Positions 28,515-61,530 of a stretch of DNA of 64,000 nucleotides are shown piece by piece. Position 1 is the stretch's first letter; every line of letters begins with the position of its first letter. Source of the DNA: Tubulanus polymorphus (taxonomy: Eukaryota; Nemertea; Palaeonemertea; Tubulaniformes; Tubulanidae); contig NC_134025.1 in NCBI RefSeq assembly GCF_964204645.1, forward strand, positions 28,178,001-28,242,000, given 5' to 3'. The translations under genes were made by a program, and so were the position numbers. The notes below the pieces were generated by a model, which saw nothing but the letters and a program-made list of their open reading frames with translations, was not told where the DNA came from and did not search any database.

Positions 28515-31205
<2,691 letters not shown>

Positions 31206-31929: not shown

Positions 31930-33060
31930 CTAAACAGCAGTTAATTGTCCTGGCCCAGTCGTGACCATCGTCATTTCAACCTCATCCGTGACGTCACTGA
32001 GTGCGTGATCGTTCTGTGGACGTACGCATGCGCAACAACAAAATAAGTGCCTGTTAAAATATGATCTGAAGGTCTGATCCAACAAGTAGATAGTTATTGG
32101 ATTAATGCAAGAGTTCAAGAAAATCAAACAGAAGCCAGTTATTTTGAAAACGTGCCACGTCATGTTAAAATGTCCAGGATCGAAATAAAACCACATCAGA
32201 TAAACATGTCTCGGAAACCAACAAATTATGAAAACCAAAACTAACGCAAGAACAACTCCGGCCAATTTGACACGACGTTTTTTCATTTGATTCACGTTGT
32301 TTCCTGTCGTTGTTTGGGATAGGGTCAGTTTGTTGTCATCTGTGAGGGCCGTACGTTCGACGGCGTAACTGCTGAATCCTGTGTTCATCAACGTCGCCGC
32401 CAAATTAATGTAACAAACAGCAATGATTATAACAGGAATTGCGAACAATACGACAAATCTCGCGCATATGTGATAACGAATGTAATTCGTCCATTCGGTA
32501 GGATACGGGGTACATACACAGAAATGTTGGTTATCAGATGAGTGATATCTTATAACGGTAGCGGTGATAAGATCTGGCATGCCTATGAGAAGGGCCAACG
32601 CCCACATCACAAGTATTGATATTATAACCCGATTCGAACTGGTAGTTGCTTGGTACCAAGACGGGCTCAAAATCAGTTTGTAGCGTTCGATACTTAACGC
32701 GGTTAGAGTAAATATTACGACGCACGTTGAAACGGTTTGGAGAAAATCGACAATTTTGCAAATTGTAACGCCAAATGGCCAACTGGTAAGGGTATACACC
32801 GTGGCGGTGAAAGGTACGCAAATGATGATCATAACTAGGTCAGCCGTTGCCAGGTTGATTATGTAGGCGTTCGGCACCGTCTTCAAAGCTCTGTGTCTTA
32901 TGACAACGTAAAGAAGCGTTCCGTTTCCGAGGCAACCGAGAACAAACGTCATCGCGAAAACAATAGGTACAACAATTGACTCGATTGTTTGTGCGGGTTC
33001 GTACTCACCCTCTCTTGATGTTACGTTTAATTCTGTTACGTTCTGCATGAAGTCGACCAT
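31930..33060 (-). CDS. CCHamide / EP (GGNG) / bombesin-type neuropeptide receptor
   Basis: Intronless frame of 376 residues, rhodopsin-class GPCR. The start is taken as the ATG at 33060; the frame extends upstream only from a TTG. N-glycosylation sites NVT lie at 7 and 12. TM1 carries GNGTLLYVVIRHR, and TM2 follows VPNAYIINLATADL. Cys101 before TM3 pairs with a Cys in extracellular loop 2 (CVCTPYPTEW). The DRY motif is ERY (125-127), TM6 holds CWFP (280-283), TM7 holds NPITIY (320-325), and a CCCAC cluster after helix 8 is a likely palmitoylation site. The extreme C-terminus TAV fits a class I PDZ ligand. The PYPTEW loop and WFYF..WHV block closely resemble insect CCHamide receptors, whose lophotrochozoan relatives bind EP/GGNG peptides. 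Predicted plasma-membrane, G-protein coupled. It is divergent from, and next to, the GGNG-type precursor gene. Confidence 0.88.
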   Translation of the reverse strand: MVDFMQNVTELNVTSREGEYEPAQTIESIVVPIVFAMTFVLGCLGNGTLLYVVIRHRALKTVPNAYIINLATADLVMIIICVPFTATVYTLTSWPFGVTICKIVDFLQTVSTCVVIFTLTALSIERYKLILSPSWYQATTSSNRVIISILVMWALALLIGMPDLITATVIRYHSSDNQHFCVCTPYPTEWTNYIRYHICARFVVLFAIPVIIIAVCYINLAATLMNTGFSSYAVERTALTDDNKLTLSQTTTGNNVNQMKKRRVKLAGVVLALVLVFIICWFPRHVYLMWFYFDPGHFNMTWHVFKITGFCLIFLNSCINPITIYLLDQTFRSYFNRHLFCCCACVRPQNDHALSDVTDEVEMTMVTTGPGQLTAV

Positions 33061-33981
33061 CGTATCCACAGCCCGTCGCAATAACAAATAAAAAGTGCGC
33101 AAAGTTCGCTAACTAATTCCGGACAAAGTATGTGTCCTCCTTACACTGGGCGTTCGAACGTCACTCTGTCCTCAATTCTCGTATTGTCTTAGCGCTTCTG
33201 ACGATTGCAGTTGAAGAATTAACTTCGCGGCTGCACTTTGTTCATCTTTGATGCTGCAAGATTCATATAGCAGCGCCATTGATCTCCACTGAAACACTGA
33301 TCACGTGTTCAGAAACGCCAGGGTAGCTGCTGAGATGTTTCTGAGAATGTGACCATAGACAGCGCGAAGTCTGATAGATATTTTACTCGAGGGGTAATTA
33401 CCAAATAATTAACCTATTCAGTAATGTAAACGAAACTAATCGAGGAGATACATACATTTTTACGTTTAAAAAAAATTCTCATTCCGCGTACGATAATGTC
33501 GAGCTATTATAGTTAATTGGCTTAGGTCACGAAACGACCCGTATGTAGATTAATGTCTGTGTTTATGACGATGAAAAAACCCGCGGTGTGATATTTAGAT
33601 AGTAAAATAGAATAGCTGTTGAATCAAAGTTTGGTGATTTGTTTTTTTTTTTGGTTTAATTACTTAAAACTATGGAGGATTGAGCTTCCCCTGATGGGAT
33701 GAAATTAAAAAATCGGCGCGAAAATAGTTTTGGTGCTGACAACGTTTGCGTCGAAGGCGTCACCGGTTTAGTGTTTTATGTGAGCATCCGAGAAATGGAT
33801 GTTGTGATCTGTACTGACAGGTTAATTAACATGACACCCGCATCATAGTCTAGAAAATCCCTGTTTCATTCATTCCACTCCCAACATCATGACGTGCGTG
33901 ATTTTTACTTGTTGGATTATTTATCCGTGTCTTGTTTTATTGCGGTTCTATCGAAATACATAACCTCCATCGAAAGTATAT

Positions 33982-34126
<145 letters not shown>

Positions 34127-37100
34127 TTTGAAGTGATATCAACTCGATATTCTAAACATAATATCGATTTAGCCTCAAACCAAAGCGAACAAAATGTTAT
34201 TTTATTATTGTTTATAGATACAGTAATACGTCGTGTTGGACCGTTTGACTATATCCAAAGAATATCACTGAAGACGAGAATTATTATATATCTGAAACAT
34301 CGAATAAAACATTAGCTGAAAGTAACTTTTAGGACACATACTCAATGTGACGATAGCTCTTTAATAATTCGCAGTAAATTACATCTCGTTTGAATCGCAC
34401 ATATAAATGTTTAGGGAATTCACATATAATTGCACTATGTAACTGATAATGGTTCAGCGGTGGTATTGCCTCTATTCTGTAATTAACTTTCCTCGTAAAC
34501 GACGTCAATTACAAAAACTCATCCCACACTAATTGCAGGTTAATAGAGATTAAGGTTGCAAAGATCCCATCGAATCTCTTAATTAGTTTTCTTAATTATT
34601 CACTGAATTTGAAAGTTGAAAGTGTCGATTCTAATTAATCAGATTTAATAGAATCTGGTTTAACGTGTCTACCCTAAGTAGGTTAAACTTATTTCGTGTG
34701 GAAGTGCAAATTGTGAATCGCATCTAGAATTGAAGTTCCAATGTTTTGTTTCTAATTTCGGTTAATTCATACTGCAAATACTTAATTCAATTCGATGAGG
34801 TCACCTCTCAATTCGATGGACAAGATGCATATACTGCTGACGTAATCACAGAATAATACAGCAAAGTCCTTTGGCCGGAGAAACTTCCAAACTTTCCTCA
34901 TCTCCAACATAAAGATATCAGTTTTCTGTAAGTTATAAGTAGAATTTTGAATTCTCTTGTGCGCAAGTAAAACAAAGGTCTTTCCTTAGATGTGTATGAT
35001 ATGTATAAAAGCGACAGCGGCGCATCAAACTATGCGTGTCCAGTAATCCTGCTCTTTTAGATACTTGATCGTATACAGGCTGGTCATTTAGCGATAAAAC
35101 CAAACTGCAGTTAATCTAGTCGCATGAGTCACCGGATTATCGTATAAAATCCATTATACAAACAGGATAAAAAGCCGAGCGTTATATTACAGTAGTCATC
35201 CGTAAGATCAAATCGGAACAATGCTCGATTAGAGGTGGTTATTAAGTACAGAATTACGAGATGTTTATTCTACTGAAGAGTAATTACTTCTTACAGAATT
35301 GCGAGAGCTGTTTGACCCTTCGTGACTATAACACGGTTAAGGCGTTTGACTGTAATCAGGGGCTTCTTCATCAAAACATAACCCAACGAATGTTGCTCAA
35401 CTCCTGATTTTATCATTTACTATAATGTCGTTTTCTCAATGACTGTCCTTACGACGTTTCTAACAACCTGTGCTATATAGATATTATCTCGATAATTACA
35501 CATCAGAAGTGTACAGGAAGAGTCGTTGACGAGGAATGATCAAGAAGCTGACGCCTCTCCGTCAGTTTTGTTAGTTTAACTATCTGAATTAGATTTATTC
35601 ACAGACTAGTCTATGATTTGAGCTGTTACATTATGATCTTGCTATAAACCTTTACAATTTATATCCTTTATTGAGAACGATGTATCAAACAATACTTGAC
35701 ATGAGCGATCATTGGTACTCAACAGAATACACTCCATTAAAGATGAAATGATTCTCATGTCAGTAGGTAATGATATAATATAAAGCATGAGTTACCGTAT
35801 TATCATACATTGTCAGAAAAACATGTCCATTTCAACAAACTTTCACCTCCATTGCGAATGACAAATCTATTCAAATGTAATACAATTTGACTGAACTTGT
35901 ACAATAATCTATTACTATCAGATAATACAATTTTATAAGGGTGTCCAAACATGCTGTCCCTGCTTTTGTTCTGAACTATTTTAGACAACAAATTATTGTT
36001 ATTACCATTTTAGTTTGAATAACGATTTTTCTTTCTTACTTAAAAAATACAGTTTTAGTCTTTTTCCATTCGATTATTTATTGATTATCCAAAAATATAC
36101 ATAACGTCACTATATAATTACATTTAGCAAACTGTTTCACAAACGTCGATCAACCTTGGGCGTTGAAATCAATCGGCATTGCGTGCTATAGGTAACTGAG
36201 AGAAAAAAATCAGTCAATTCGCGCGATACGATAGTCCGATGTTGCGTGTTAGCCCTCAAGCAACTCATAACGAAGTCGCTATACTGGTCGACTGTGAAAA
36301 TGACTCCCGATATCTGTGGATGAAAACTCAGTCGAGTGATTACTTTATTAAGAGATCATTTTACCTAACGAAGAAATCGGAGCTGCCCTCAACTTGTAAA
36401 TAGACGTATGATTTAAATAATAAAAGACTCGCAGCTTTGACTTACACAGAATCATACCAGCTAGATGAGAAATGGATAAGTCTTCTCCGTAATTTCACCA
36501 CGCGTCTTGAACTATCTATCAATAACCTCCCGAAAGAAGTGACATCAATTCTCATTCTGAGGTGATCAGATATATGTAATGTTTCTAATAACTATGAATG
36601 ATCCTCGTCAGTCTCGCCTGTGAAAATGAGGTGGAATGAATTGCAAAAAGATTTGCACCATCAAAACCTAATTTTTTGTGGTCAAATATTGGTGGTGGCA
36701 TGCTGGGAAAGCGATGGACATACATCTAATAACAAACACGACAGGTCCAGAATCCAACGAAGCGTGATTACACAAACATGGCTAACATCAACGTCTAACT
36801 TTGATCGTCGTTTACTCACGTTTTCAGCAAATAGTCACGTTTTACATCATAGCTATCCGATATTTCATCAATAGCCGCTCTAGGTAATCAACGAGCCAAT
36901 ATACATCAGCAAAAATTGAAAAACACTTATTAATGGAAGCCGTTAGAAGGAAATCATTAACGTGAAACTGTCAAGTCACACCTACATGGTGGCAAGACAC
37001 TAAACATTTTACCAGATGAAAGAAAGAAAAAGAATGTAGCGAATGATACACGAGAACTTTCCATATGACATAAAAAGTGATCCTTTTCGCCACATGAATC

Positions 37101-37672
37101 ATTTTGTTACCAATGCAACAAAAGCTTGTTTTGGTATCTAAAGATTAACGCATTCGCCGTAACAGGATATTTCATTAGTTCTACTAAAAACATCTCAAAA
37201 TGTCTGGCAATTTCTGAAAAAATGTGATAAACGATACAGGAACTTCAGAGCTACTTAAAATGTACACATATACAATTCTAACATATTGTTATATCTTACA
37301 TTAAACTGCGACTATAAAATTCACATTTTTGGAATTTGAGATGGTGTAAAAGTTGGAAATCTCGGAGACCAGTGATTTGGTGAAAATAATCCTTCAATCT
37401 TTACTTAATGTGAACTATAGACTGGTATCAGGTTCATCGACAGAAACAATTGCAAACAGTTCTGGAACTGATCAGAACGTGTGAGCGTGTCTATTACTTA
37501 TAATCGATGGATTAGCATTTAGTTTACAGAAATGATTAGAAACTAATTAATCAACGTGGGCAACCGGAGACTACTTGAGATCACAAAATGAATACTTATT
37601 TACTGTTTGAGAAAAGTTATCATCCCGTTGTTTATCAAATATCAATTATGTTTTCTAACTGTAATAGTATAT

Positions 37673-37702
37673 GGGGGGAGGGGGGAGGGGGGAGGGGGAA
37701 GG
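37673..37702 (+). repeat. G-quadruplex-like G-rich run
   Basis: Four G tracts of five or six G separated by single A residues, then GGAAGG. Tracts this long with one-base loops fit the classical parallel G-quadruplex pattern. It lies about 3.2 kb before the precursor start codon. Confidence 0.8.
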
Positions 37703-40700
37703 AGTTTCGTCGACTAGAATTAGATCTGTTCTGTTTGATTATATCCCATAATGTTAGCAGGATATTATAACGCCATGAATCAGTGAAAAGTCACGCAGAA
37801 TTTGCCTGATCCAAGCTCGCGTTTGTCACCCGACAATTTGAGTTATGATGATCTATCGCCATCAATGTCCGGTCTGAGTAACTTCACTGGCCATTAACTA
37901 TTCTATAACGTCAATCGTCACTTTGAATATTTATCGTACGAACGTTTCAGTTGAAATGTTCATTGTTTTAGTTTACTGCAAGGTTCGTTAATTACTGATT
38001 AGCATTTGTGCGGATTCATACACACACATTTATTTGTTTCGTTTTCATTTCATATTTCTGTACGAGGTCATTTCGCAGGCGAATCAATTAAACACCAATA
38101 TAACCACGAGAACAGAAAGAATAGTTTAGCGACATGAATGAAAGCTTGTGAACCGACCGTCCGGGGTTCACTAAGAAAAGTAATGATATTAATTTACGTA
38201 GGCTATTTACTCCGTTGTGCTTTCAGGATATTAAAAGGATCTAATGTTTTCTATAGCAATTGCACACACGGACACTTTTGCATGATGAAATAGTTTTACT
38301 TATACACAAGATCTACGCATGAATCTTTCACTCGTCTATTCCCCAGATTTGATAAGTCAACAGGCTGAATAGCAAGCAAACATAATCCTTCAGAGTCTCT
38401 TACTTTTTCCTCGTAATATGCTTTTTAGATGATACACGTTACGGTTTGTAATAGTTGTAGCTGATAGTTGTAATACTTCGTATACTTTCGGTCAGGTAAA
38501 GTGGCTATAGGGATCGATCTTGATAGAAAACATTTTGAAATTCTTAGTTTGAATACAGGAAATTAGAAAGACTGTAAATAAACGCGAACAAGAAACCTCA
38601 GACGAAGATATAATATGTCTGAACCAGTTCTGTTTCGCGAAAGATTTTCAATGTTGGTTTTCAATGTCGCAACTGACAATAGACATCAAACATCAAGTGT
38701 GTTGGAGTTTCAGGATCGTCATATCCTATATCGAGAGCCTACGTAAATACGTTTAGGCCTATCATAACTTTTCTCAGTGAACCTTAGACGACCCACTTAA
38801 TACGAATGTGAGTATATCAAGGATCCAAGTGTGTAATGGATACTTGTGCGAATTCAACACTGTCTTATACTTAGACCGACTGTTTTACGTACGGTATAGC
38901 AACTAATTAATTCATTCGATGTGTTTTTTTTCAGATATCTGTCATCTCCTAATTGATTCGATCAAGTTATTCAAGATCATATATTCATATTTTCCCGATG
39001 TAGCAAAATACATTACAGTAATAGGCATGTTGGTGGGATATCGGCAATGCTGTAAATGTAGAATCACATTTCCGTAATGAATTTTTTGCAAGTTGGGGGT
39101 ATTTGGACTGTGTTTTTGCTCGATAGATCATTTTAAACCTTACACAATTACGTTACTCAATTAGAATTCTAGTGTAGAATACACCACAGCGGAAACACTT
39201 GTAAAAAACAGCTACGAGCTTGATCCCGAATCTATGAATAGAACTACAGGAAGTTCCCCTCTTTACTTTGTTTACTTTCAATATTGCTCATACTGATCCT
39301 CAGTGACTGATATATCTCTAAAATTAGAAAAGCCTATCATTTCATTTTCTGTCGCGGTCAGAAGTTTTTTGTTTTTGTCAACATGAATCGTGGATTGCGC
39401 TGCGCATTGGTTGAAAAGTTGAATCACCGTTTCGCTTTGGGATGGATATCTCATTGCTTTTCGATGAAATATTCTGAACGGATTCACTAATCTATCATAA
39501 ATCGTGCTTCGGAATATTAATTAAACATTCTCCGGGACAATGGGCCATCATTTCGTGATTCGTGTTCCGACGCCGTTTTCCAGGAATAAGTTTATTTGTT
39601 CATTTATATTCTCTTTGTTCGTTGATATTATATTCACTGAAAAACGAAGCATGTCTGGAAAAAACGCACGAGTCTATCGATCGTTCCATTTCCAATGAAT
39701 ATTGAGATCGCGCGTCACTTCTTTTTTATGTCTAAACTATTCTGTAATTTGTGTCTATTTTGACGAATGAACGTCCTCTAGTTTTAATAAGTTTGTTCAT
39801 AGATTAAATTCAAGAATTGAGATTTATGAGACTATTAGGTCAAGATACGCAGGCGATATTTTTTATGTCCGAATAATTAGGCAATAAATAATTCATGCTA
39901 CAATATTCTGTTTCCGTCATATTTAATCAATATGTTTGAAGACTTATTAACTGTTAGACGCATGCCTTCGATCGAGGCAATAAATGGACATTCTACAAAA
40001 GGTCCGTGGCAGGGGGAAACGCCCTTGATAATTTGACGTAATACTTCCCGAGTATATCGTGCATTTTAGCGCCTACAAATCAAAACAATTTGACTCGCTA
40101 ACCAAACTAACAAATCTAAAAACCACAAATCTAAAGAAAAGTATGACGGACGAAATAATGATCCTCGTTTGACAGGACAATGATGAAGCATGTATGATAC
40201 GTAATAGTTTGGATCGGACATGAACATAGTACGCAGTACACGCGTGTGTGTGTCATCGAACTCAAATGAGTGAGTTCGTGTACAACCTCGTTACATTTCA
40301 TATTATATGGGAAAATACTTAACTTAATACTTAACGATGTCATTTCTTGTTAGATTATACATTAAGCAATCAGTTCTTTCTACTACATCAAAACTACGAT
40401 TTACGGATGATGACATCACGTTGTATAGATGTATAATGAAATCTGCTCTACGTAGTTGAGAAGTGGGTGGTTTACTGTCGGGTGCATGGAGGATGTGACG
40501 ACGCGTTACTACATAAACCGGGGTTTCACTTTACGCTAGCGTCACTCGTTACACATTCTCTCATTCAATTGTCATCAGTAACTGCTCGCCGCTTACGTTA
40601 ACGCTTCCGACGTCCACTTTGTTACACTTACAACGCCACCTATTATCAAAACGAAATACGAGACGTCGTGTTTGTTTGGGGCGCTTAGAGTGGTGAAGTG

Positions 40701-40766
40701 TTATGGTTAGAAACTTGATGAAACTGAGCAGCCCAAGTTTAAAGTACGACAAGCTAATACCAGGAT

Positions 40767-40774
40767 TGACGTCA
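40767..40774. promoter_or_regulatory. Consensus CRE (TGACGTCA) upstream of GGNG-type precursor
   Basis: The palindromic full cAMP response element, in context TTGACGTCACG, lies 126 bp before the start codon at 40900. Full CRE sites close to the start are common in neuropeptide gene promoters. A TATA-rich stretch (40882-40900) lies directly before the ATG, too close to act as its TATA box if transcription begins downstream. Confidence 0.45.
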
Positions 40775-40899
40775 CGTTATAGCGGGATTTATTCCGGGCC
40801 TCATTAATTACAAAGCCGGGATTTTTCATTCATACAGAGCTTTCAGTTTTGTTTTAATTTGAAACATTAGATACATAGGTTGTATATATATATATTTAT

Positions 40900-43800
40900 A
40901 TGAGAATGCGAACTAACGGAGCTTGGTCACTTGTACTATTGGTGGCAGTTTACATATGCGTGTCTCGAACTTACGTACAAGCAGGTAAGAATGAATCGTT
41001 GTGTATTTTTGTTGTCTTGTGCTTATTTATCTATATTTCGTTGTTATTTTGCATAGATCTTGCTATTTACACGTACGTACATGTGTTACCGTATAAATTC
41101 TAAGGCCACCACCGCCATCACACCCCGGAGCAAAAATTGGGTTTATAAATCAATTTCACATAAGAAAATCATGTAAATTCATTTGATGCGCTCAATTCAA
41201 TTGTAGTCCCAGTAAGTAGTTAGGCAAGTATCGTAAAGTATCGGTCAATTCTAAATTCTAGAATTGCGCACGCCCGAGAATTGTAAATAGGATTAACAAT
41301 TGTCCAATGTAAACAAGACGTATAGGCTCCACCAGCTTCTGAGTCTAAAATTCATGCTGAATATTAATGAATTAGTATTTCGATGATTTCTCAAATGACC
41401 CCGTTCGCTTATAAGGGCAACTTATCCGTCCACGGTATCGAATGTGATTCTATTATGTAACGAAGACGAATAAAGAATCAGTAACACAATAAGAACAATA
41501 CATTTGCGTCAATTATATGTATTTATTCATTGATAAAATCAGAGAAACAAATAGACGATAACCCGTACCATAGCTCATAGACGTGGATCGCTTACTAGAT
41601 ATACCATGAATACCAATGAAGTATACATGATAATCATTTCATATGTATCCACTCCTGACGCCCAAAATATCCCTAATCTATAAATTGATTTACCTTCCAT
41701 TCTATATTTTTGTTTAAGCTTACTCTTAATATATATACATATATATATGTATATATATATATACATATATACATATATATATAAGTGCAGAGCTATCCCA
41801 GCAGGAAATGTCGCTAGTTTTTCTAACTTCTAATTGTGAGCAGGTAGTTCAAAGAACATCGAGATGATGTGCAACTGTTTCTAGTTTCCCTATAAAAAAT
41901 TGAATTAGTAATTCAATGGCGCATTGAAACACCAGCCAGCTCATCCATAATCTAAATGCACTGTGTCTCTCAAAAAGTGAGGCTATTTGCTGCGTTCTGC
42001 CTTAATAAGAATTCATGAGTGATCGTGTAGTCACACTGCCCGGTTGCAACCGAGGTGTTTTACCATCATCTTTTACGATATCAATAATTTACATGATGCG
42101 GCCACGACGTCTCAGTTGAGAAATAGGCTTAATATTCAAGAAAAGAAGTGAAATCTTAAAACCTATCGGGATTTGACTTGTAATGCCGTCTTTCGGTTCT
42201 GAACTTATTTTGTTTTAACTGGCCTTACCACTGTGATGTATGTGTCTAATATTCTATGTCTAATATTCCCAAAAAGCAATCGTTCCCTCAAATTGCGCGC
42301 TTGTTGTTGTATGTATACCTTGCGTATAAACTGTTTTTTTTGTTGAATGACTGTTCGAACTAATGATACGGGAGTCCTATACATCGAAAACACCGATGAC
42401 TGATTACAGGAAGATGTCAGGATTCCATTTACGCGCCAGTTAGATTGATAACTTACAAAACAATGGTCGCATGTTAGTTCATCTTTAGAGGTTTGATGTA
42501 TGAGAAAGGGAAGGGTGGGGGAGATTTCACCCCATATTTCGTGAATGGCACATATTGATGATGGTTCTTATGCTCTGCGTCACTAATATTTTGATCTGCG
42601 ACGACACCGGACTATTTTCTATCATGGCCTCGGGTATCAATAACATCTTTACATATAACATGTGTAATTCAAAACCTCATTATGACACTTAATTTCTGAT
42701 CTTTTATAAATAACTTATTTTCCGCTTGTTTGTTAAGTTAGGCGCACCTGAAACTGACAACTTAACGGCACAGTTCACCACCGCCCATATCATCAGTCGA
42801 TCTGATGAATACAGATTGGTTTGATGCCGAATAAACGTTAACGCTGTCCAGAATTACACCGGACTATGTTCGCCTTTGGCCGCGTTTAATGCCTAGCACA
42901 ATGTTTACTAATCAGTTTATAAATTCCCAACACGCACGAATCCTATAAACACGACAGAGTCTAAAATCAAAATTTACTGCTGTCGATGCTGATAGAGAAA
43001 GGATTTCTTTATTAATTGATGTCACTGATGACAAACAGTATTCCTTTACCTGTCAGGTATCCCAGAGATTGAGCTTATACTGTTCTGTACAGTGCGATTA
43101 TCATTGTCGATGTCACATTTTTTGGGTGAAGGATGTACTGATTAATTTTTCACAATAGACTATAAAAACGTTGCGTTGGGTTAAGAATCTATGTCACTAA
43201 AATGGCAGGAACTATATTCTCTTACACCTCAAAAGTAATTTTGTATTGATATAATCCCATAACGAAACGATGTCTCGTACGATATTTATGCTTAACCACC
43301 TGTGGATAGTTTACACGGTTGGTTAAAGGTGAAGGAATCATCTTATCATCAATAAATATATAATCCTATCTGAACGGACGTCACATCGCTTTTCGGAAGT
43401 ATTTCGTCGACGGTTTTTCTTTTCGTGATTTTGGTATGAATGTTATCATTCTGGGACAAATATATTTTTTTGGAGGAAATAGATTTATCGAGAAAAAGAA
43501 TGTTTTCGCTGTTTTTCTTTTTTACAAATGAATGCGAACTAGCGATGTCGTTACTTTTGATCGGTAATTTGATGCGATATAAATCATGTCAATTATGAAT
43601 GATCGTTTTTTTCTAAACCATGGTGCCTGTCAATATAGGCGTCACCTCTTGAAGTTCGATATGTTGCTGGATCCCCAAGGAATGCCTCCGTTAAATTTGA
43701 ATAAATTGATTGATGATAACAGAATTTTCCAAAGCGTTATAAGTTTGTGGTATGGTTTCCGCTTTCAAACGCCCGCAGAAAGAAACTCATCGATATTGGA

Positions 43801-49800: not shown

Positions 49801-52800
49801 TTCGAGTTTTACGGATAGCTTCTATTCCATGTGCCTCCTCAAATAACATATACTTTACACCAATGCCCCGCGGTGTAATTTTCCGTTATAAACGGGTAGA
49901 GGTTTTTTTATACGTCAGATGATTATTGACTTCTATTTAATTCTATGATTTCTTCACCGAAAAACTACATTTACCATTTGTGAAATAAATACGTTAAATC
50001 AAATTCGTCAAATTAACCAAAAGAGGTAGGAGCGTCAGTGAAATTCATAGATCAATAGTTAAAATGCGACGTTATATAAAATTCCTTAAAGCAGAAAAGA
50101 ATTCTTCGTAGTAAGAGACCTAATGCTGATAATTCGGAACTGCGTATGACACGATATACCGATAAAACTGACTAATCCATTGATAGCTTGACCACTGGTT
50201 AGGTCGAGCTCATCAAAAACTAATCAAGTGTGTGTAGGTAGGTGAAATGGGTAATACATTCTCTTCCGTGTGACTTGGTACATACTTATTACTATCTTCG
50301 TCTTACAATCGTATACCAAATAAATCACGTCCAAGAGATTTCTATGCGTTATATGTCACCAATGCTCTGCAATCGCTACATCATATTTCCCGTATATTCC
50401 CCTGATCTGATACTATTCATCATAATTCAGAAAAGAATTACTCCTGTTTGATGATCTAGAAAAATAAACGCATTAACAAACAATTTATCGGCCGTACCAT
50501 GAACACCCCGGGCGGTTAGTCACGAGTAACAAATAAATTTTAAAAGAAAATGCAAAAAAATTGTATGGCTCTAAAAATTATTTCCAATCTTTTTTCTCTA
50601 TTTGGAACAACACTATTTAGCGCATCAAGATTCCAGTATTTGTATTGTGTTTATAAACCCAGCATTACCATTAAAATCCAGTCGCAATTACTTTGATATT
50701 AATGAAATCGACGGCCCAGAATACGAACCACGGTCGGAGTAAAAATCAGAAAAATTATACGGGCTCAATTACAACAAATTCGCGTTTTATTGGCAGTTAG
50801 ACTATTTACACAGCAGGGTTAGGGAATGGGGGGTAGAACTACGCTTCAGGGATGTGTAAATAGTTATTACACATACAGCTGAAAGACAGCGTGGTTTTGT
50901 TTTTAATGGTTGAGGGAACAATCCGTTATATTACCCACCAATACGCAATCTTATCAAACATTGCCTTAACCCGTAACGCGAACAGAACAAGACATTCTGC
51001 TTAGAAATTCATTTCTCGTATTCAGTAAAGAGGCGCCTTACGTAAAAAAAAAACAACCATGATCGTGTGTTTATTTAATACGTGATTATGAATGTAAAAC
51101 CTCTCTGGAACTTTTGACAACTGAAAAGACGGCAATTACGTGCACAGGAAATGTTCAATTCTAATTCTCAAAACATATCATTTGAAACAGAGAAGTTACC
51201 GGCGAAGAGAGGTGTAATTTTACATATGATATAGACTTGTTTGATATTCCCGTGAAAGTTATTACAATGAAACTTTATTCTAGCCTCGACATTTGTATAT
51301 TCTCGAGTTATAGATGCGAATCAATCCCAGAAAATGGCCCACTTCGCGCAATATATCAACATCTTTAACCTGTCATCAAGTCTTCATGTGCGCTCAGAAA
51401 CTTCGACTGCGAATCAAATAGTAATAATTCAAAATATTTTCATCTCGATGACAGGTTTGTCACCGTATGAACGGCTTTGGCAGTCATAATGTTTGATTCG
51501 AACGCTTAAATGAAATGATCATTTATCAAGTGAGAAAACCCTATTGATCATTAGTGCTTTCGTTTTTAATTACACCGTCGATCGATTGGGTTTGTATCGA
51601 TTAGACTCGCTTCACTGAAACAAGACGAGTTTTGCAGTCAATTTGCTGTAATACTTTGCGATGACGTATATACTACTTTGGACGGTAAAACGAAAAGTGA
51701 AATAGTGTTTAGTGTTTTCTGTCTCCACCGCGTAAATACATTTTCATTACCTGAAATATCCAGCGTTAATTAAGCCAACAATTTATTGGGCAATTACTAT
51801 AGAAAAATTTGATTTGGTTTTCTACATTCTCGGTTCGCTGTGGTACGGAATGTATTGTAATTACACCAGTGCGCAGACGGCTTACAGTCGGAATAGAAAA
51901 CCGCTGGTGAAACTCTCGGGGTAATTTATGATAGAATATCACGTCCGGCCGCGATAGATGCTGGAAAAATAATTGTATTAGGTTATTGTTTCTAGTTACC
52001 GATGAAATTGCAATGCGCTCCGTTTCTTTTCATGTCAACGGCGTTCAATGTCTTAAGGCGATAGCGACCGGGTTTAAAGCGGGGGGCCGTTTATACTACC
52101 TGCGCTTTATTCGGTCTCGGGTTCGATCCCACTGCTGCAGTCCGTTCTAAAGTAGATCAGGTTGGACGAAACTATTTTACAGTTTCTAGTCCTGAAAACC
52201 TTTTTTGAGGCGTGAGTTATCATATTTCACCGGTCCTTCGGTGGATTAGCACAACATTCAAACCGGGTGAATATCTGGTTTTCAGTTATGTCGAATTCAT
52301 TTCACAAATTTGCAACAATGCGACACGAAACTTATGATGAAAAAAACTGTGGCCATTTTTTGCCATAGTTAATTCAAAAATTCAAAGATGTCTTGCCGCC
52401 GAGTTTTCATTCTATGGTTATTTCATTGCAGCGCGTCTATCGCCATGCCGAGTTTCTGCGGTACTGTTTTCGATGAATTTAGATCTATTCATTTTCACTA
52501 TAATCATAGCGGAGGATAAACCAGCGCAAGATGCTCTTATTACTTTCCAGTCAGCGGCGGGTCGATCCTGAACTCCGCATTCAAGAGCGCGAAAAAGCAC
52601 CAGTGTTCCGTATATGCGACGTTCTCCATTTCATGTTCTATTATTGCTTCGAATCAAAGTATGAATTGATCAGTACCTGTCTCGGGAAATGGAATCAAGA
52701 TGACACGAGTAGTGACTCATGATTGAACCGTATCTTAAACTAAAGCGCTTTCAAGGGAAAATGATACCAATCATTTTTTCTCATTAGAGATCACTTCAAA

Positions 52801-55800
52801 CGTATCAAATGATCATTACTTTACTCAAGGTTTCTTCGCAGCTTTTCTTCATAATAATTTGTTTCTATTGATACCGGAAGTAATCGAGTAGTCACTGAGC
52901 ATAACTTCGAGATATCGGGTTATATAGAAATCGTTGAATAGAAAGATATCTATATCGACACCAGTTGCTCTGCGGTGATCTCAAATAATGACAAAACAAT
53001 GAGAAAATGTGGAAATCAATTAAACGTTAGTTGTGTATTTTCCGATAACTGCATTACGTCCATTTCTATCAACACGTAAAGACTGAGACAGACTGTTGGT
53101 TAGGGTTTGGTTTCTGGTGTAAAAAATTCAGTAGATTTGCGCATAATGACGAAATTGAGTATGTCGTCACTGAAAACTGCATGGTGTGACCGGCGTGGTA
53201 TTCATACCTTTAGCCAATCTTATTAGATATTTCAGGCGAATGTTTAAGACCAACCCTTAAGCGGCAGGATGGAGAAAGCATTTTGGGCGCTCGATCGATT
53301 TATATAAAATGTTTCATCAATAGGTTATCGATTAGTGACGAATGAAAGGCCGTGAGTAACAGTCAATTAATGGGGAAATGAGGCTTAACAGTTCTTACAT
53401 CTATATCAATAATATATAAAGATACCCTATGCATAAGATAAATAGACAAATCAATTTATTCTTATCCCTATAGCCAAAACACGCCGTGCCCATTGCTGGT
53501 TAGAAATAAATGACAGATTCTAATGGGGCTATTATATTGACGCCATGAAATTCATGATAAAGAAATGATGGTTGCTAAATACCAACTACTCACTTTACAG
53601 TAAAGAATTTGACTAGACTAAAATAATGAAAAACGAGGTCCAACCTACAATATTGTGAAATTTAACCTTGAAATTTAAAGGTTATACCTGTTCGTATATA
53701 GATCATGTTACATGAAATTGAAGGAATAAAATAACGTTTTCCACATATCAAATCATTCAGTCGAATGTATTCGCCGAGCAATTAAAGGACTGACGAACCA
53801 CAACTCTCATTAATGAGGCGTAAAAGGCCACTTCAAAACAACCACTGATGATGTGATTGATTCCCACGTTAATTGTTTCAATTTGTAGATTTTGAGAGCG
53901 ATTTCAAGGTTTTTTGTATACGTTATTTTCATGGTTGAAAAATGAAATTCATTCAAACTACATTATGACATTTTACGGCGTCTGAGAAAAGCTGAAAGAT
54001 TGCAACAAAATTAGAAAGCAATTGAGCGATAATGACGACAAATTAATCGTCAATCGTAAAGAGGATATCCTCATGGATAGGTTCGTACACACGTATTTCC
54101 ATGTGTTTTTTAAAGAGATCTAATTCTGATTTGTATTGATTCAGTATTAAGTATCAGACATTATACCACAAGGTGTGACTGTTATTATACACACATTAAA
54201 CCACTTATATCATATGCATTAGCAATATCTATTGAATCGAACCATTTCTGTTTTCGATTTCATATTTATAGATCTGTTTTCACCTGTGTCAGGCTTTTAA
54301 CACGTCAAAAGTCAAAAGCATAGTCATATTTTTACCCATCAATGAAAATAGCTCCGACTGCTTAATGTAAGATATATGTATATCATGTTTTTATGTAGCA
54401 AAGGCAACATCGATCCGACGGAAAATCGCTTTTTATTTGATCTGTTGATCGATTCAAATAATTGAAATCTAATTCGATGAATGACTTGTCAGATCATTAT
54501 ATATACATCATAGTTAAGTTCGCTAATGAACCTATATCAAACCTATATCTGATTATATTTCTATGTATGATTTCCATCATCACAGAGAAACGATTGTAGA
54601 TGTAATTGTTTTAGAAGTGGAAGGAATTGCTACGGCAAAATAGCCGGAAGAATATCCCGTTGGTCAAATATTAAGAGACAGATCCATGAAGAATTTGTAG
54701 CTTTCGGCTTAATAAGAGTTTAATATAGAACTGAATGGTTTGTGAATGTGTTCCTGGTGTGGGTGGTATAATTGCGTGGGTGGCTGCATTATCGATTGAT
54801 GCGTTCAATCACACATCACGAAGTACTAAATACCATCTATTACGCAGACGAGGAAGAAATCTCCAAATGAACACCATAAATTTTCAAATCGGAATAAACC
54901 AATAATGTTTTTGCCTGGAATGCCCCGCTATATACATATATCATATAATATGAAATCATCCTTTTTCCTGACTGGCGTTCGCCCTAAAATGAAAGAATAA
55001 GTAACGAGCATGATATAGAGTAACAAACATAATACATGGCGTATAAACTCTGTATCGCTTCCTGAACAGCCATTGATATATACTCGAAAAGCAAAGGTAA
55101 CTATTGTCCATTGCCTCTCGGCTGTAGCTAACTAATATGAATAATAGAAAATATCCTGTTACGTCTGCTTTGAGAAATGATAGCGTTCTATCAATCGTGA
55201 GAACTATCAATAAGAAGCTAGAGTTGCGGGTTTTTTGCCTCTGCATTTAGTGACTGTTACATCACGAAATACTAAACTCCATTTTCTCACCAGATTAGCA
55301 ATTTTATCCTTCCGGCAACAACAAAAACATGTAAAAAGCTACTCCGTCATTTCATCAAGGCGTATTATACCCAAGCATGAAAAATTTGCGATGATTCTAA
55401 GCAATTTTTATCTGATTACCGTTCGAATAATTTGGGATTGCCAAATCTTACGGGATTTCAATAACATTCTTTAGCCAATTCCTGGTAGTTGGAACAATTC
55501 AACACAGCCGCCGACTAAACTTTTTAAAACCATAAGCAGTGGGAATAGATGTGTATTGAATCACAAGTTTGATGTCACACGATACGAGTTTATTGTGAGT
55601 TTTTAGTTATTACCCGATGTTTACGCGAAGAAAACGTAGTCTGACTAAAGAAACGCAGATACGATGGAATATGAGTACGACTTTCGTTGTGCATGGTGTT
55701 ACATTTCATCCAACTCTAAATTTCCTCTTAAAATAACGCGTGATTTATAAATAAATATCACTTCCCTAAAACGCGTATCGCGAATTTGAATAAACACCTG

Positions 55801-58800
55801 AAATTGTCGAGCAATGACGTCATAATCGCTGTTACTAGATGCAAGACGTAAAATGCATCGCACAGAAGCTTTCAGCAAAATTATACTCATTACAACCTTT
55901 CTTTCTGGGAGTGTTTCAAAAAATCTGTCTTAATTATTTCCCAGAATCAACGCGAACAACTGCTTTTAATGATACTAGCTATAAACAGAAAATTCAGAAA
56001 AAAGTATCCTTAACTATTTACGTTGAAGTGTACTCCAGTAAAGCGAGTACAGTACCAAAAAAAATATTTACTATTAAGTAAAGCGTTTTAAGGATTCGAG
56101 CGATTGTTTTAGGGCATTTCGCTTTCATAGGTTTTACTGACAGTATTAAAAACGATGCCCCCTTTCCGTTTCGTGGACTCACAATCTTGTATCATATCAT
56201 AGTCAATATAAGACAGAGAGTTAGAATTCTTTCGCGTCTAAGTAGCGACCTTTTATTAGACATCCGGTTTTTGTATAGAACGCCCGATTCGAACGGTCAT
56301 CGATACGTACTTGATGCTAGCTGCGAGAGTATTTTGAGAGTCTGTGCTAGAAACTGCTTTCGTCTTCAGCGGCATCGATTTCCGACGCTTGTTGCGAGAT
56401 CTCGTTGCTCGTTTTATCGCGGTTTTTATTTATTTTCTCGAGAGTCGATTAGCGAATCTTTTACCTTCCTCGATGCTATCAATCGTCTGTCGTTATGTAT
56501 TATGCATGTAGTTTCGTGCTTTGGATTTTATCCAAAACTAATTTTCCGATAGTCTGCGGCGCGAGTCGGAGCGAACGTGAGGACTGGCGACGTTCAGGAA
56601 CGTCGGTATTTTTGAAATATAATTCGGTTTAACGCTCGAGGTGCGATTTAGATGCGGCCGATCGTAACGTTTTTAAAATGATAAGTGAAAATCTTGTTTG
56701 TAGCGGAATTAGAATTGAAACTGGAGTTAATAACGTTGAATTACTCATTTTCTATACGACAATCTAAGATTCCCTACGAGTCGCTTTGTGGCAATTATTT
56801 GATTTAGATTTGAATTGTAGAAAATGCCTTATTCGCCGCTTTATCCGATAATATTTAATCTTCGTTTCAATTTCACGGTTGCATTCAGACACCCCGGGAC
56901 TGCTTATCCGACAGAATTTCCTACTTCTTAACAAATCAGTCAATAAACCATGAAATTCTGACGTAGAAATGATGGCGCTGTATCTTTCTCAGCCAGGAGT
57001 ATAACGTGCTGATTTATCTGTGTCGTTCTCGCATCCGTTAAAATTTGAATAAAGTTCATTAGTTGATAATTGATTGTCACAAAGTGAAATTTTGCCGATG
57101 GCCATTCTATTCAGGGATCGTTCGTCGAATTCAAAATACATGTACTACCAGAGCTGCTAGGTCTGATGTAACACGTTGAATACAGAAAAGTTCAAATATC
57201 AACGACTGTATGTGTTATTTGTGAAAAAACGGGTAAATTATGTTCAATATAAATTCCCGTACATCACTCAAATTGAATGATCAAACGTATAGCAACATTC
57301 AACAAATTAACTCATGAATAAACCCATGTTTCGTCGTTCTTTTCACGGACCCCGGGGGAAATAGATGACTAACGTTGTATTTGCACCAATACGAAGATAT
57401 ATGTTAACTATGAAATTTGCTTCTATTTCGACAAGTGTATATATCAACGCGGCAGATTTGCACTTAAGGTTGGACCTAACTCCATTTATTATACATTAAT
57501 TACTCCTAATCTTGGTCGACACTGGAGACGCATCGCTAAAATACCCAGAGGACTTGTTTTGCGTCGCTGAAAGTTTAGCTACAATTCGGATGGCAAGTGG
57601 TTTTAATGATGACCATGTCTACGTGGATAGTTAATGATCAATAGTATAGGGGTAGAAATAAATGATTCGTCGTTTCAGTCTGATAGAACTTGCGTCGTCT
57701 AATCACAGCACACATACAATTTAGATACATACAATAAATAAGAACATATTTTTACAAAGTTTGATAAGAGCAACATTTTCAAAAATATTCTCTGTTGGTT
57801 ATGCCTAGATTCCCCTTAAATGCGTATGGAAATTCAAAGTGAGTTAGTGCGGTTCTATGACCGACCGGCCAGACCACCGAAATCTTATCAGTGAAGCTCA
57901 TGAACTACATGTAGACAAAAACGATATAGAGGATGAAATTTATATCCGATTCATACATCGTCCATCGGAAAACAGATGTTTGGGGAAGATTGACGATGGT
58001 TTGATGAGAATAATATTCATTTCAGTATTGTATTCATTTCCTACATTCCGATAAGCACAAACGACTAATTTACTTCAGCCTCTCTTCTAACATCGGAATA
58101 GATCTGTTGGAATCTGATCAGATGTGGACATACGCATGAGACTGGATGAGTGTTTGAAATCAGATTAATGACCTGTCCCTGGTATACATATCGGTCAATT
58201 TGTCGACATCAATTAATAGACAGATGGAGGGTAGAGCGAACGTGTGAGGGAGAGAGAGTGAGAGTGAGTGAGAGAGAGAGAAAGACATGTTATGGCTCTT
58301 TTATTACGTCTCTTGAATATCGTTAGAATGATATTGTAATTGTAAATCTTTTTTAGTCTTTTATTACCTGGTGTGAAATCTCTTCGATACAAGTGGACAA
58401 TTAAACATATCTTTCTATATGTATATATCATTTCAATTAAAAATGGAAATTGTAAAATCACTTAACAATGTGCGGTCCAAGTTCGTAATTACTTTCGTAA
58501 TTAGTTTTATCTCACCCCAAAAATAAAAAAAAAGATGTACAGGACTACGAGCGCTTTGCTGCAGGCGCCTAATAAGTCGAAAACGTTCCGAAAAGAGCAA
58601 TAAGCTAAAAGTGGTATTTTATCTCATGGAGGCACAAGTTAAAGGTGCGTAATTATGGAAGCTTAAAGCATCCGAACCGACTAATTCACATACTACGGCT
58701 GTATGACTGACTATCCATTTGCGTCCATAAGTCAACATGTTTGACCAGGCACGGTAATCAAATTATTTTCACTCAGTTCAAGTTAATCACTCGAAAGAAC

Positions 58801-61530
58801 CGTTTAGCCCTTTTTTTGTTTGTGTTCGAAATGTGTAAACGTTATAGGCTTGGACTACAGCTAATGTTATGAATTACCAAAATATCCTGAAAATTTGATC
58901 AACTCTTATGTAATTTATAATATCATTATCGAAGGCGTTGTAATCTAAGTGTCATCTGAAGTGTGTTAGTTGGTTTGGTCATATTCGGCAACTCGTCCAC
59001 CATACGTATAATACGTTGCTTAATAGGCCATTTGTGTGGTTTCTTTTCTATTCATCCATATTTTCGCTAATAGTAAATGATGGCAAGGTTATGAATACGG
59101 AAGAAGATATGAAATTGGCTTCTATTAAGGGGATGACATTAGTGGACTACATTGACTGGGAGATTACCCTAGTTAGTCAGCTTAAACATATGTCATCATT
59201 TCCGACTTTACTTCCAAGACAAGGTAGAACGAATTGTCAGACAAATATAATCAACTTTATACGCCTTACCTTATACTGCGACCAGAAAAGAGAAAGAGAG
59301 AGTAGAGAAATGATTTCTATAGACTTGCGTTTATCTGGGTATTTTGGTCTGCTTTTAGTTGGAAAGATGATATATCTATACATTACAGATCATTTTGTGC
59401 GCGAACATACAAATGCCACTGATCATGAATCTAAATTAACGGATGGTGTTTATTCTAACCTACAACCGCCTTAAATGCAGTTGGTTGTTTGATTCGATTG
59501 ATAAATTTAACAAAAAATTGTTGTTTGTGCTTGTGAAAAAAGTGCTGTACCGTGGTGATTACCAAACTGCGCCCGAAGAAAGACCGGACTACAAAGTGCT
59601 CGTCTGATGCTTCGACAAGTTGTTAGACAAATGTACTTAGGTTATAAAAAGTACTTGAATCGGGGATACTTGTAGTCGATGAAAGATAATTTTTCTTTGA
59701 AGTATTCTTCTTATACAGCAAAGATAATTATCGAATCAATTAAATCGACGCTGAGGAACTGAACGAACAGTAAACTTTTTAAAATGTATTGAAAAACACT
59801 TAACATCCTCAAACTCCAACTAGCTTAATTTGATGATAAGGCTGTTCTTCTATTTGAATATATTGCCAACGGGAATCTTTGATCACTACCACGAATATTT
59901 CACATTTGAAGAACTAAAGAGATCGGTCTTGCGGTACCGTGTATAATCATCGTCTTTGGTGTGAGAGGTCCACTGGACTTTTTATTCAGATGGGAGATTT
60001 CCATTTGCATATCGATGCTACTCCCCTGTCGGTATTACTTCACTATCTATCACAGAACCGACGATGGGTAATGTTATCAAGGATTAGTAGGGCCTACATT
60101 GTAGTAGATGGTAGCATTGGTCGCTCGTGATTTAATTCTGGTTCAATTTATCGTTGCAGGTAAATGTACAGGAAAATGGCTAATACATTCGTGCATGGCC
60201 GGAAACTCTGGCAAGCGTTCGGATTCCAGTGCAGCAAACAGATTACAATCACAAGAAACTTTAGAAAAATTACTCCGAATCATTAAACAAGAGATAAAGA
60301 TCCAGTCGGATCAACGACAGTTGGAAAACCCGTCGATAGGTAGCAGCATTAGCAGCACGTACCAAGATGAACCAACGCCTAGTTCAGTTTTATGGGAACG
60401 TTTGGTAAGATTAATAATGCATCGCCCATTGTTCCAATAAACATCAGCGACAGACAGAAGTTTATACTGGCCACTAGAGTTGCTGAAGCGTTTAACATGA
60501 CTACAAACATTTTATCCGTGTTTATTAGATTTGAGCTGTCCGTGCTACCGCAAGTGAATACAAACCGTCCACTGTCAAATAACTTGATTAATTTCGCATC
60601 CCAGAGGCCTTCACCGGCGCTTACTATTTCTGAAACAAAATATCATTGTCGAAGAATCGAATTTCTATTGTTATAACTCGGAATATATTTCGTTATCTAT
60701 TTATGATGACCGTCCGTCTGTATATGTCTAATCATTTCCGCTGGCGTGTACCAATTTGAAAGACTTCGTGCACAGTATCATATTACGCCCTGAATGTCTT
60801 AATCATTCTACGTATATATATGAATATATCATACCATGTATATATGATTTCGTTCTGTAATATAAACAAAGGATAAACAATTATCTATAAGTTTGTATTC
60901 AACTATCCAAACGTAATACGGAGTTTTCTTTCATGATTTCGACTTGGTGACGAAATTCGAGTTATTCAGTGACGAATGCTAAACGGAAAGCACATACGTT
61001 AATGAAAAATGTCCTTGGTGCGCCAGCGGTGATCAGGCTGAACCGTATGGGCTTATGGTATAGGCCTAATAACTCGAATTTCGATATTTTAAGTCGAAAA
61101 AATTTAAAAAAAAAATCTATCAATTTCATCACGAAGCCTGTAAGAATTAGTTTGTAATCAATTTTTTGAGGAGATGGAACCTCGCGTTGAAAAATGAAAT
61201 AAATATGGCGATGCTTTAAGCCGGGTGTAGGTAGACCTTTGCGACTGCTTGCGATTTATTGAGACGCTGCCCGTGCGGATGACCTAGACTATTCGCACAC
61301 GTCGCAGTCGACCTATGCACCCATCTGTCGCGTTGCAACTACCTACACCCGCATTTATGGCAACTTTACCTCATTAGGTAATGGTGACTTCGCTTCTTTG
61401 GGTAATGTTACCGAAAGGTAATATGACTTTCATTTTCCTCAGCAAAGTACTTATCATTATTTCTCTTATTTCTATTCAGCTGACGAGACTACGAGATCAA
61501 GAAGAACGCAGAAGACGCAGACGCAAGTGA
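40900..61530 (+). CDS. GGNG / excitatory-peptide (EP)-type neuropeptide precursor
   Basis: Three coding exons: 40900-40984, 60160-60404, 61480-61530, with GT-AG introns and matching phases (1, then 0); 126 residues. Exon 1 is a signal peptide (SLVLLVAVYICV) ending TYVQA. Cleavage there would free GKCTGKWLIHSCMAGNSG before the dibasic KR. This matches the annelid GGNG pattern: Cys-x8-Cys with W-x-I-H between and a Gly/Asn-rich end (earthworm peptides, from memory, read GKCAGQWAIHACAGGNG). The Gly before KR could allow amidation. The rest is an acidic/Gln-rich helix (QETLEKLLRIIKQEIK), a Ser/Thr linker and a tail of six Arg and a Lys. It is secreted by neurons or gland cells. Linking exon 1 to exon 2 across 19.2 kb is inferred from phase and the cleavage site. 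Confidence 0.82.
41729..41782. repeat. Imperfect TA/CA microsatellite
   Basis: TATATA tracts broken by CATATA and GTATA, about 54 bp, inside the precursor's first intron. Confidence 0.85.
45112..45199. mobile_element. Possible GC-rich inverted-repeat element
   Basis: A GC-rich island in AT-rich sequence, starting TTTAAGGCTGGCTTACG and ending CGCAGCCCAGCTTAG. The ends are imperfect inverted repeats. The inner CGCGACGCCTACCGAC resembles a widespread type of marine-animal MITE. Confidence 0.4.
46101..46246. repeat. Two tandem copies of a 73-bp unit
   Basis: The unit AAATATTATTTTCAATA... starting at 46101 recurs at 46174 with four or so differences. Each copy contains the near-palindrome GTAGAATACATTCTAC and the dyad AACTTAATGTAAGTT. 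A partial third start (GAAATATTAATTA) follows. Confidence 0.85.
52055..52207 (+). mobile_element. tRNA-derived SINE-like sequence or tRNA relic
   Basis: A-box-like TAGCGACCGGG at 52062 and B-box GGTTCGATCCC at 52120-52130, with the first seven bases and the T-stem failing to pair. It is therefore not a working tRNA. It runs on to a T-rich end (ACCTTTTTT) near 52207, as in tRNA-derived SINEs. Confidence 0.35.
56210..56670. promoter_or_regulatory. CpG-rich patch within the precursor intron
   Basis: CG dinucleotides are much denser than in the flanks (for example CGATCGTAACG, GGCGACGTTC, GCGCGAGTCGGAGCG). In invertebrate genomes such patches may mark unmethylated regulatory DNA or old exons. 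The 121-codon frame at 56187-56552 shows no protein features. Confidence 0.25.
58235..58286 (+). repeat. GA-rich simple sequence
   Basis: GAGAGAGAG and GTGAGTGAG motifs over about 50 bp. The 82-codon minus-strand frame over it is a low-complexity artefact. Confidence 0.8.
60160..60404 (+). CDS. Peptide-bearing exon 2 of the GGNG/EP-type precursor
   Basis: The acceptor TATCGTTGCAG precedes GTAAATGTACAGG and the donor is TTG|GTAAGA. The exon starts in phase 1, so the last base of exon 1 supplies the first Gly codon of the mature peptide. It encodes the single cyclic-peptide copy, the KR site, and most of the C-terminal spacer ending VLWERL. This exon alone supports the family call, whatever the first exon turns out to be. 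Confidence 0.87.
61222..61351. mobile_element. 130-bp inverted-repeat element (MITE) in precursor intron 2
   Basis: A perfect 13-bp terminal inverted repeat: CGGGTGTAGGTAG at 61222-61234 and its complement at 61339-61351. The interior is GC-rich with GTCGCAGTCG and GTCGCGTTGC. No coding capacity. It lies between the peptide exon and the terminal exon of the GGNG-type precursor. Confidence 0.7.

What the first reader, a model, noticed from the sequence alone, without database searches (positions are those of the whole stretch)
31930..61530. A GGNG/EP-type ligand gene next to, and head to head with, a CCHamide/EP-type receptor gene
The sequence shows an intact rhodopsin-class receptor (31930-33060, minus) with CCHamide-receptor hallmarks. 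It also shows a precursor (40900-61530, plus) whose single peptide has the GGNG pattern, Cys-x8-Cys with W-x-I-H. Established knowledge, from memory: lophotrochozoan EP/GGNG peptides activate receptors orthologous to arthropod CCHamide receptors. If these are partners, ligand and receptor are physically linked with 7.8 kb between start codons. Such linkage is rare for neuropeptide systems and would allow co-inheritance or shared regulation. That they bind each other is inference.
Basis: partly seen in the sequence, partly recalled or inferred. Interest (0 to 1): 0.9.

Follow-up and report, generated by a model that had tools for sequence, protein, structure and literature searches.

The report
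Neuropeptide gene beside a duplicate receptor
A gene for a worm- and mollusc-type signalling peptide sits back to back with a gene for a receptor of the matching family, but that receptor is a fast-changing duplicate and a more typical receptor lies far away on the same contig, so the two being neighbours is real while a working partnership is unproven.

Summary
The receptor (31930-33060, minus) is an intact 376-aa rhodopsin-class GPCR. The precursor has three coding exons (40900-40984, 60160-60404, 61480-61530) and encodes a signal peptide followed by GKCTGKWLIHSCMAGNS-amide, an EP/GGNamide-type neuropeptide ending in AGNS-amide instead of GGN-amide. Its intron phases (1, then 0) match those published for bombesin-type precursor genes. 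The start codons are 7,839 bp apart, head to head, in gap-free sequence of a 32-Mb contig. Of 36 genome receptors put into trees, only this one and L002 (C1:4.753 Mb) join human bombesin and endothelin receptors (support 97-100). The neighbour is a diverged paralogue with about twice the branch length, sharing 16 of 30 pocket positions with L002. One EP precursor was found in the genome. Most likely one peptide serves both receptors, and the linkage is possibly fortuitous. Conservation of the linkage, and binding, could not be tested.

The parts
31930..33060 (-). Receptor gene, single coding exon, 376 aa plus stop; diverged paralogue of L002 in the bombesin/endothelin/CCHamide/EP receptor group
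33061..40899 (.). 7,839 bp between the two start codons (divergent, head to head)
   Evidence: the one ORF of this stretch that was scanned (36602-36871) has no Pfam match over its cut-off
40767..40774 (.). TGACGTCA (CRE-like palindrome) about 125 bp upstream of the precursor start codon; function inferred only
40900..40984 (+). Precursor exon 1: signal peptide MRMRTNGAWSLVLLVAVYICVSRTYVQA plus first base of a Gly codon; phase-1 donor
40985..60159 (+). Intron 1, phase 1, 19,175 bp; none of the nine ORFs scanned in it has a Pfam match over its cut-off
60160..60404 (+). Precursor exon 2: rest of Gly codon, mature peptide, GKR, then C-terminal spacer; phase-0 donor
60162..60209 (+). Codes for KCTGKWLIHSCMAGNS of the mature peptide (the leading Gly codon is split over intron 1); C-x8-C disulfide predicted
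60210..60218 (+). Gly-Lys-Arg: amidation and dibasic cleavage site
60405..61479 (+). Intron 2, phase 0
61480..61530 (+). Precursor exon 3: LTRLRDQEERRRRRRK and stop

Best explanation
The plus-strand gene makes a single-copy EP/GGNamide-type neuropeptide precursor. Signal peptidase cuts after VQA, the Cys-x8-Cys pair forms a disulfide, a convertase cuts at Lys-Arg, and the exposed Gly is turned into an amide, giving GKCTGKWLIHSCMAGNS-amide (processing inferred from sequence). The minus-strand gene encodes a peptide GPCR of the bombesin/endothelin/CCHamide/EP group, one of two found in this genome. The other, L002, is slower-evolving, looks like the canonical EP/CCHamide-type receptor and lies 23.5 Mb away. 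The linked receptor is a diverged duplicate that shares 16 of 30 pocket positions with L002. I expect the one peptide to activate both, in the way that EP activates its receptor in Lineus. The head-to-head linkage is then a lineage-specific arrangement that could be fortuitous or could have been kept for shared expression. Shown: gene structures, placement in the receptor group, linkage, one ligand gene and two receptor genes found. Inferred: processing, binding, signalling, lineage-specificity and any role of the linkage.
For: Gene model in frame with consensus splice sites. Intron phases 1 and 0 as in bombesin-type precursor genes (PMC12002301 section 7). Peptide placed directly after the signal peptide, single copy, two Cys, amidation site, and Asn at the spiralian position, as described for EP/CCHamide (PMC6617912 sections 11 and 18). 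Scallop GGNamide GKCRGRWSIHACLGGNamide (PMC5996578 passage) matches at 10 of 16 positions counted by hand, including the leading GKC; oyster GGNamide (PMC4200219 passage) at 8 of 16. The receptor clade with human BRS3, NMBR, GRPR and EDNRB contains two genome genes, support 100/98, 99/97 and 100/98 in three trees. The two receptors are reciprocal best matches in the genome: 9.5e-80, next 4.6e-34, and 9.3e-79, next 1.4e-46. Pocket identity of the linked receptor is 16 of 30 with L002 against 5-6 of 30 with the bombesin receptors.
Against: No activation data. The linked receptor is diverged (branch 1.16 against 0.50) and 39 positions shared by L002, NMBR and GRPR are changed in it, so it may have changed ligand or lost function. 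Its sister relation to L002 is 89/88 in one tree and unresolved in the other two. No authentic CCHamide or EP receptor sequence could be fetched, so 'EP-type' rests on bombesin/endothelin anchors and on L002. Pocket retention against other TM positions (16/30 versus 74/161) is no clear excess. A strongly diverged second EP-like precursor could have escaped.
Confidence: 0.7

Rival explanations
1. The linked receptor has left the EP system: after duplication it took another ligand or became constitutively active, and its position beside the EP gene is coincidence. L002 alone is the EP receptor.
For: Faster evolution and changes at conserved positions, such as ERY for DRF/DRY in TM3 (alignment). 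BRS3 of placental mammals is reported as such a case in the same superfamily (PMC6422423 passages). Three other peptide loci (one NPY, two neurophysin, one of these with a stop inside) lie 200 kb or more from any of the 109 scored GPCR matches, so linkage is not the rule here.
Against: The reading frame is intact and Q3.32, R5.42, R6.51, W7.31, K7.35 and F7.39 are shared with L002.
Confidence: 0.22
2. The pair is a functional cassette: ligand and linked receptor are co-regulated from the shared 7.8-kb divergent region, for example as an autoreceptor in EP neurons, and are kept together by selection.
For: Divergent orientation; the one ORF scanned between the genes has no Pfam match over a cut-off; a CRE-like site about 125 bp upstream of the ligand start. 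For relaxin-type peptides linkage has been proposed to favour co-expression (PMC3310001 passages).
Against: 7.8 kb is long for a shared promoter. No relative was available to show that the linkage is conserved. No such site lies near the receptor start codon; the nearest CRE-like sites are in its coding end and at the ligand.
Confidence: 0.13
3. The proximity is an assembly artefact that joins two unlinked loci.
For: Two long perfect TA arrays (30970-31202 and 33984-34123), a kind of sequence prone to misassembly, bracket the receptor.
Against: No N in the window; the contig is 32 Mb; arrays of 116 and 69-70 units were resolved, which suggests long reads (inference).
Confidence: 0.04

Closest known systems
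Scallop (Patinopecten yessoensis) GGNamide and other lophotrochozoan EP/GGNG peptides
   Same: GKC-x-G-[KR]-W-x-I-H-x-C core of the scallop peptide and amidation; single copy directly after the signal peptide as in EP/CCHamide precursors generally
   Different: C-terminus A-G-N-S-amide: Ala for Gly and one extra residue after Asn
Lineus longissimus EP (CAAGNG-amide) and its EP receptor
   Same: Ala-Gly-Asn followed by one extra residue before the amide; receptor in the bombesin/endothelin/EP group (PMC6617912)
   Different: Extra residue is Ser, not Gly; two receptors of this group in the genome, where a single one was reported from the Lineus transcriptome; my scan found one exon 1, where Lineus has two N-terminal splice variants
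Vertebrate bombesin-type system (NMB/GRP and NMBR/GRPR/BRS3)
   Same: Receptor clade 100/98; precursor introns of phase 1 and phase 0
   Different: Peptide has a Cys pair and no bombesin C-terminus; pocket identity of the linked receptor with them only 5-6 of 30
Relaxin/INSL and RXFP genes of vertebrates (ligand-receptor linkage)
   Same: Ligand and receptor genes in one linkage group (PMC3310001 passages)
   Different: There, the linkage described is between genes of one chromosome or linkage group; here 7.8 kb head to head

Membership tests
EP/GGNG (excitatory peptide) precursor | Single peptide directly behind the signal peptide | tested here: met
   signal peptide judged by a hydropathy scan only
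EP/GGNG (excitatory peptide) precursor | Two Cys with an aromatic residue and His between them | tested here: met
   C-TGKWLIHS-C
EP/GGNG (excitatory peptide) precursor | Two Gly, or Gly plus Ala, between the second Cys and the amidated end; Asn shared by spiralians; amidation and cleavage signal | tested here: met
   C-MAGNS-GKR; criteria from PMC6617912
EP/GGNG (excitatory peptide) precursor | Strict GGN(G) C-terminus | tested here: not met
   AGNS-amide; the published family also holds AAGNG-amide, so this feature does not define membership
Bombesin/endothelin/CCHamide/EP receptor group | Grouping with bombesin and endothelin receptors to the exclusion of other rhodopsin GPCRs | tested here: met
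   100/98, 99/97, 100/98; 36 genome receptors in all were put into these trees
EP/CCHamide receptor (protostome clade) | Grouping with authentic EP/CCHamide receptors | not testable with these tools
   I found no source of such sequences; grouping with L002 is 89/88 in one tree, open in two
EP/CCHamide receptor (protostome clade) | Activation by EP | not testable with these tools
   needs a cell assay
Linked ligand-receptor pair | Close proximity of the two genes | tested here: met
   7,839 bp between start codons
Linked ligand-receptor pair | Linkage conserved in relatives | not testable with these tools
   the genome tool holds no relatives of this genome (note)

The most novel reading that the evidence does not exclude
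Ligand and linked receptor form a co-evolving private channel. After duplication, the copy beside the EP gene was tuned to the altered AGNS-amide peptide and is co-expressed with it (autoreceptor), while the distant conserved receptor carries the general EP function. The locus would then be a compact model of ligand-receptor co-evolution in cis.
Probability: 0.1. Interest if true: 0.75.

Novelty: new variant of a known kind. Interest (0 to 1): 0.45.

Why it matters
Neuropeptides and their receptors are as a rule encoded apart (general knowledge, not measured here), and how pairs stay matched through duplication is an open question. A genome with one EP ligand found, a conserved unlinked receptor and a fast-evolving receptor beside the ligand gives a direct test. 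Do both respond, with what affinity, and is the linked one expressed in the ligand's own cells? It also adds a peptide with an unusual extended C-terminus (AGNS-amide).

Tried and rejected
Naming the organism: COX1 (PF00115) gave no match in the assembly, and a paper search on assembly size gave nothing, so the taxon is left open beyond 'spiralian-type peptide'. A second ligand near L002: 110 kb read; two C..C..GK[KR] hits, neither with W-x-I-H (the scan does not see motifs split by introns). Other genes in the 7.8-kb spacer and intron 1: 10 of the 21 ORFs listed were scanned against Pfam, none over a cut-off (the weak herpes UL42 match at 18.7 bits against a cut-off of 27 is taken as chance). 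CRE-like sites: 7 in the window against 1.12 expected, but three of them lie one in each of the tandem GPCR copies, so this was not pressed. TA arrays: 81,207 overlapping positions genome-wide, so such arrays are common; the bracketing was noted, not used. Structure prediction was not run, because a fold alone would not separate class-A receptors.
Full report
Observation. The receptor ORF 31930-33060 minus is intact (376 aa) and a clear rhodopsin-class GPCR. By sequence its nearest solved structures are NMBR, GRPR and BRS3 (best E-values 4e-51, 2.3e-49 and 1.8e-46), then galanin receptor 1 (2.8e-40) and endothelin B (3.4e-38). The precursor is a three-exon gene with coding exons 40900-40984, 60160-60404 and 61480-61530. 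It gives MRMRTNGAWSLVLLVAVYICVSRTYVQA / GKCTGKWLIHSCMAGNS-GKR / a 78-residue tail (126 aa in all). If the donor after exon 2 were not used, translation would stop after 11 more residues, so the peptide does not depend on exon 3. The start codons are 7,839 bp apart and the genes diverge.

Is the gene model more than chance? The strict core pattern occurs once in 267.8 Mb and its backward control not at all. The whole precursor finds its own two larger exons in the genome and one match at E 0.14 (3 of 3 candidates scored). My scan for a signal-peptide exon with a phase-1 donor gave one candidate in 27 kb plus strand, none on the other strand and none in 40 controls; its thresholds were set with exon 1 already known. 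Independently, the intron phases (1 at the first codon of the peptide, 0 in the C-terminal tail) are those reported for bombesin-type precursor genes of chordates and, for the first and third of three introns, of echinoderms (PMC12002301, section 7 read). That paper calls EP and CCHamide receptors closely related to bombesin-type ones (passage).

Ligand class. PMC6617912 (abstract and outline; sections 3 and 11 in part, 5 and 18 whole; passages) describes EP/CCHamide as a single peptide right after the signal peptide, with two Cys, an aromatic residue and often His between them, Gly-Gly or Gly-Ala before the amidated end, and Asn shared by spiralians. All are met. Several nemerteans and both rotifers studied carry one extra residue after Asn; here the extra residue is Ser. 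The scallop peptide GKCRGRWSIHACLGGNamide (PMC5996578 passage) is identical at 10 of 16 positions, the oyster one (SKCKGPWANHMCFGGNamide, PMC4200219 passage) at 8 of 16, both counted by hand.

Receptor class. In three maximum-likelihood trees the receptor falls with four human anchors and one other genome gene, L002: 24 rows, support 100/98; 13 of those 24 rows, 99/97; 37 rows, 100/98. From the first tree 2 of 21 fetched genome loci were left out as fragments (L041, L042). In the third, 4 of 20 further loci were left out as short, and 3 earlier long-branch rows were dropped. In all, 36 genome receptors were put into trees. The endothelin anchor is a partial sequence (233 aa). Only 109 of 481 candidates of the genome search were scored, so fragmented receptors could be missed. 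The receptor and L002 are sisters at 89/88 in the first tree. In the other two this is open: L002 with the bombesin receptors has 61/76, and a tree holding the linked receptor with the bombesin receptors is not rejected (p 0.16). No authentic EP or CCHamide receptor was available.

L002 (C1:4753219-4754205 plus; an open frame of 383 residues from stop to stop) is much closer to human receptors: BRS3 255 bits against 162, NMBR 249 against 178, endothelin B (chain 8iy5) 171 against 125. Its branch is 0.50 against 1.16. L002 is 42% identical to NMBR over 306 residues and 39% to the linked receptor over 346. L002 is therefore the likely ancestral-type receptor, and the neighbour of the EP gene the derived copy. 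In L. longissimus a single EP receptor was identified in the transcriptome (PMC6617912); lineage-specific duplications in this system are known in insects and in Leptinotarsa (PMC6585902 passages).

Could the linked receptor still bind EP? At 30 generic class-A pocket positions (a list recalled, not taken from a tool) it matches L002 at 16 and NMBR, BRS3 and GRPR at 6, 6 and 5; L002 matches NMBR, BRS3 and GRPR at 10, 7 and 8. At 161 other TM positions the linked receptor matches L002 at 74 and NMBR at 66. The alignment has a gap at the top of TM6, so 6.58 and 6.59 are approximate in the human rows. Both genome receptors thus differ from bombesin receptors in the pocket and share part of the difference. 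That fits a shared ligand, but 16/30 against 74/161 is no clear excess. Against it, 39 positions shared by L002, NMBR and GRPR are changed in the linked receptor, while 21 positions go the other way; 53 are shared by the two genome receptors and by none of the four human rows.

Linkage. With two receptors of the group and one ligand found in 267.8 Mb, arithmetic gives about 1 in 8,500 for a random ligand start lying within 7.84 kb of either receptor and about 1 in 2,200 for 30 kb. With 37 to 69 precursor groups per phylum (PMC8557429 passages) and one or two receptors each, one such pair at 30 kb is expected by chance in about one genome in 30 to 120, so chance is not excluded. As a small control, NPY (C6:12.06 Mb) and two neurophysin loci (C2:27.61 and 16.10 Mb, the second with a stop inside) were compared by eye with the 109 GPCR places: 0 of 3 lie within 100 kb; the nearest is 200 kb away. 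Ligand-receptor linkage has been described for relaxin-type genes, and that paper cites work finding it commoner in the human genome than chance (PMC3310001 passages); for opioids an ancestral synteny is inferred and now broken (PMC5818035 passage). Paper searches (I saw listings, and passages only of the papers named) showed no report of an EP or CCHamide gene beside its receptor, in a library limited to open-licence papers.

Verdict. The ligand is a new member of the EP/GGNamide family with an unusual end. The neighbour is a second, fast-evolving receptor of the bombesin/endothelin/CCHamide/EP group. Their head-to-head linkage is genuine in this assembly. That they are partners is plausible (I put activation of the linked receptor by the peptide at about 0.6). 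That the linkage has a function is unproven (about 0.13).

Noticed in passing
12140-14767, 17415-20039, 22690-25314 (minus): Three tandem, very similar genes for a class-B/adhesion-like GPCR (7tm_2; only the first copy was searched) with a Cys-rich N-terminus; unit about 5.275 kb.
   Followed up: no
30970-31202 and 33984-34123: Two long perfect TA arrays (116 and 69-70 units) bracket the receptor gene within about 1 kb on each side; such arrays are common genome-wide, but the bracketing might mark an inserted block.
   Followed up: partly
60108-60159: An in-frame ATG just upstream of exon 2 gives MVALVARDLILVQFIVAG before KCTGK, a possible alternative start; it may only reflect the T-rich splice acceptor.
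   Followed up: no
14029, 19301, 24576, 31989, 40767, 55815, 61528: TGACGTCA occurs 7 times in the window against 1.12 expected; three sites lie one in each tandem GPCR copy, one is about 125 bp upstream of the precursor start and one covers the precursor's stop codon.
   Followed up: partly
L021 467-3769 (C1:28.2525-28.2558 Mb): A 1,100-residue open frame with what look like LDL-receptor-like repeats, leucine-rich repeats and a 7TM region, resembling the snail GRL101 type (by reading and recall only).
   Followed up: no
214-3177 (minus) and 6168-9290 (plus): A mismatch-repair protein (DNA_mis_repair over its cut-off) and two frames with weak MIT and kinase matches below their cut-offs next to the GPCR cluster.
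   Followed up: no
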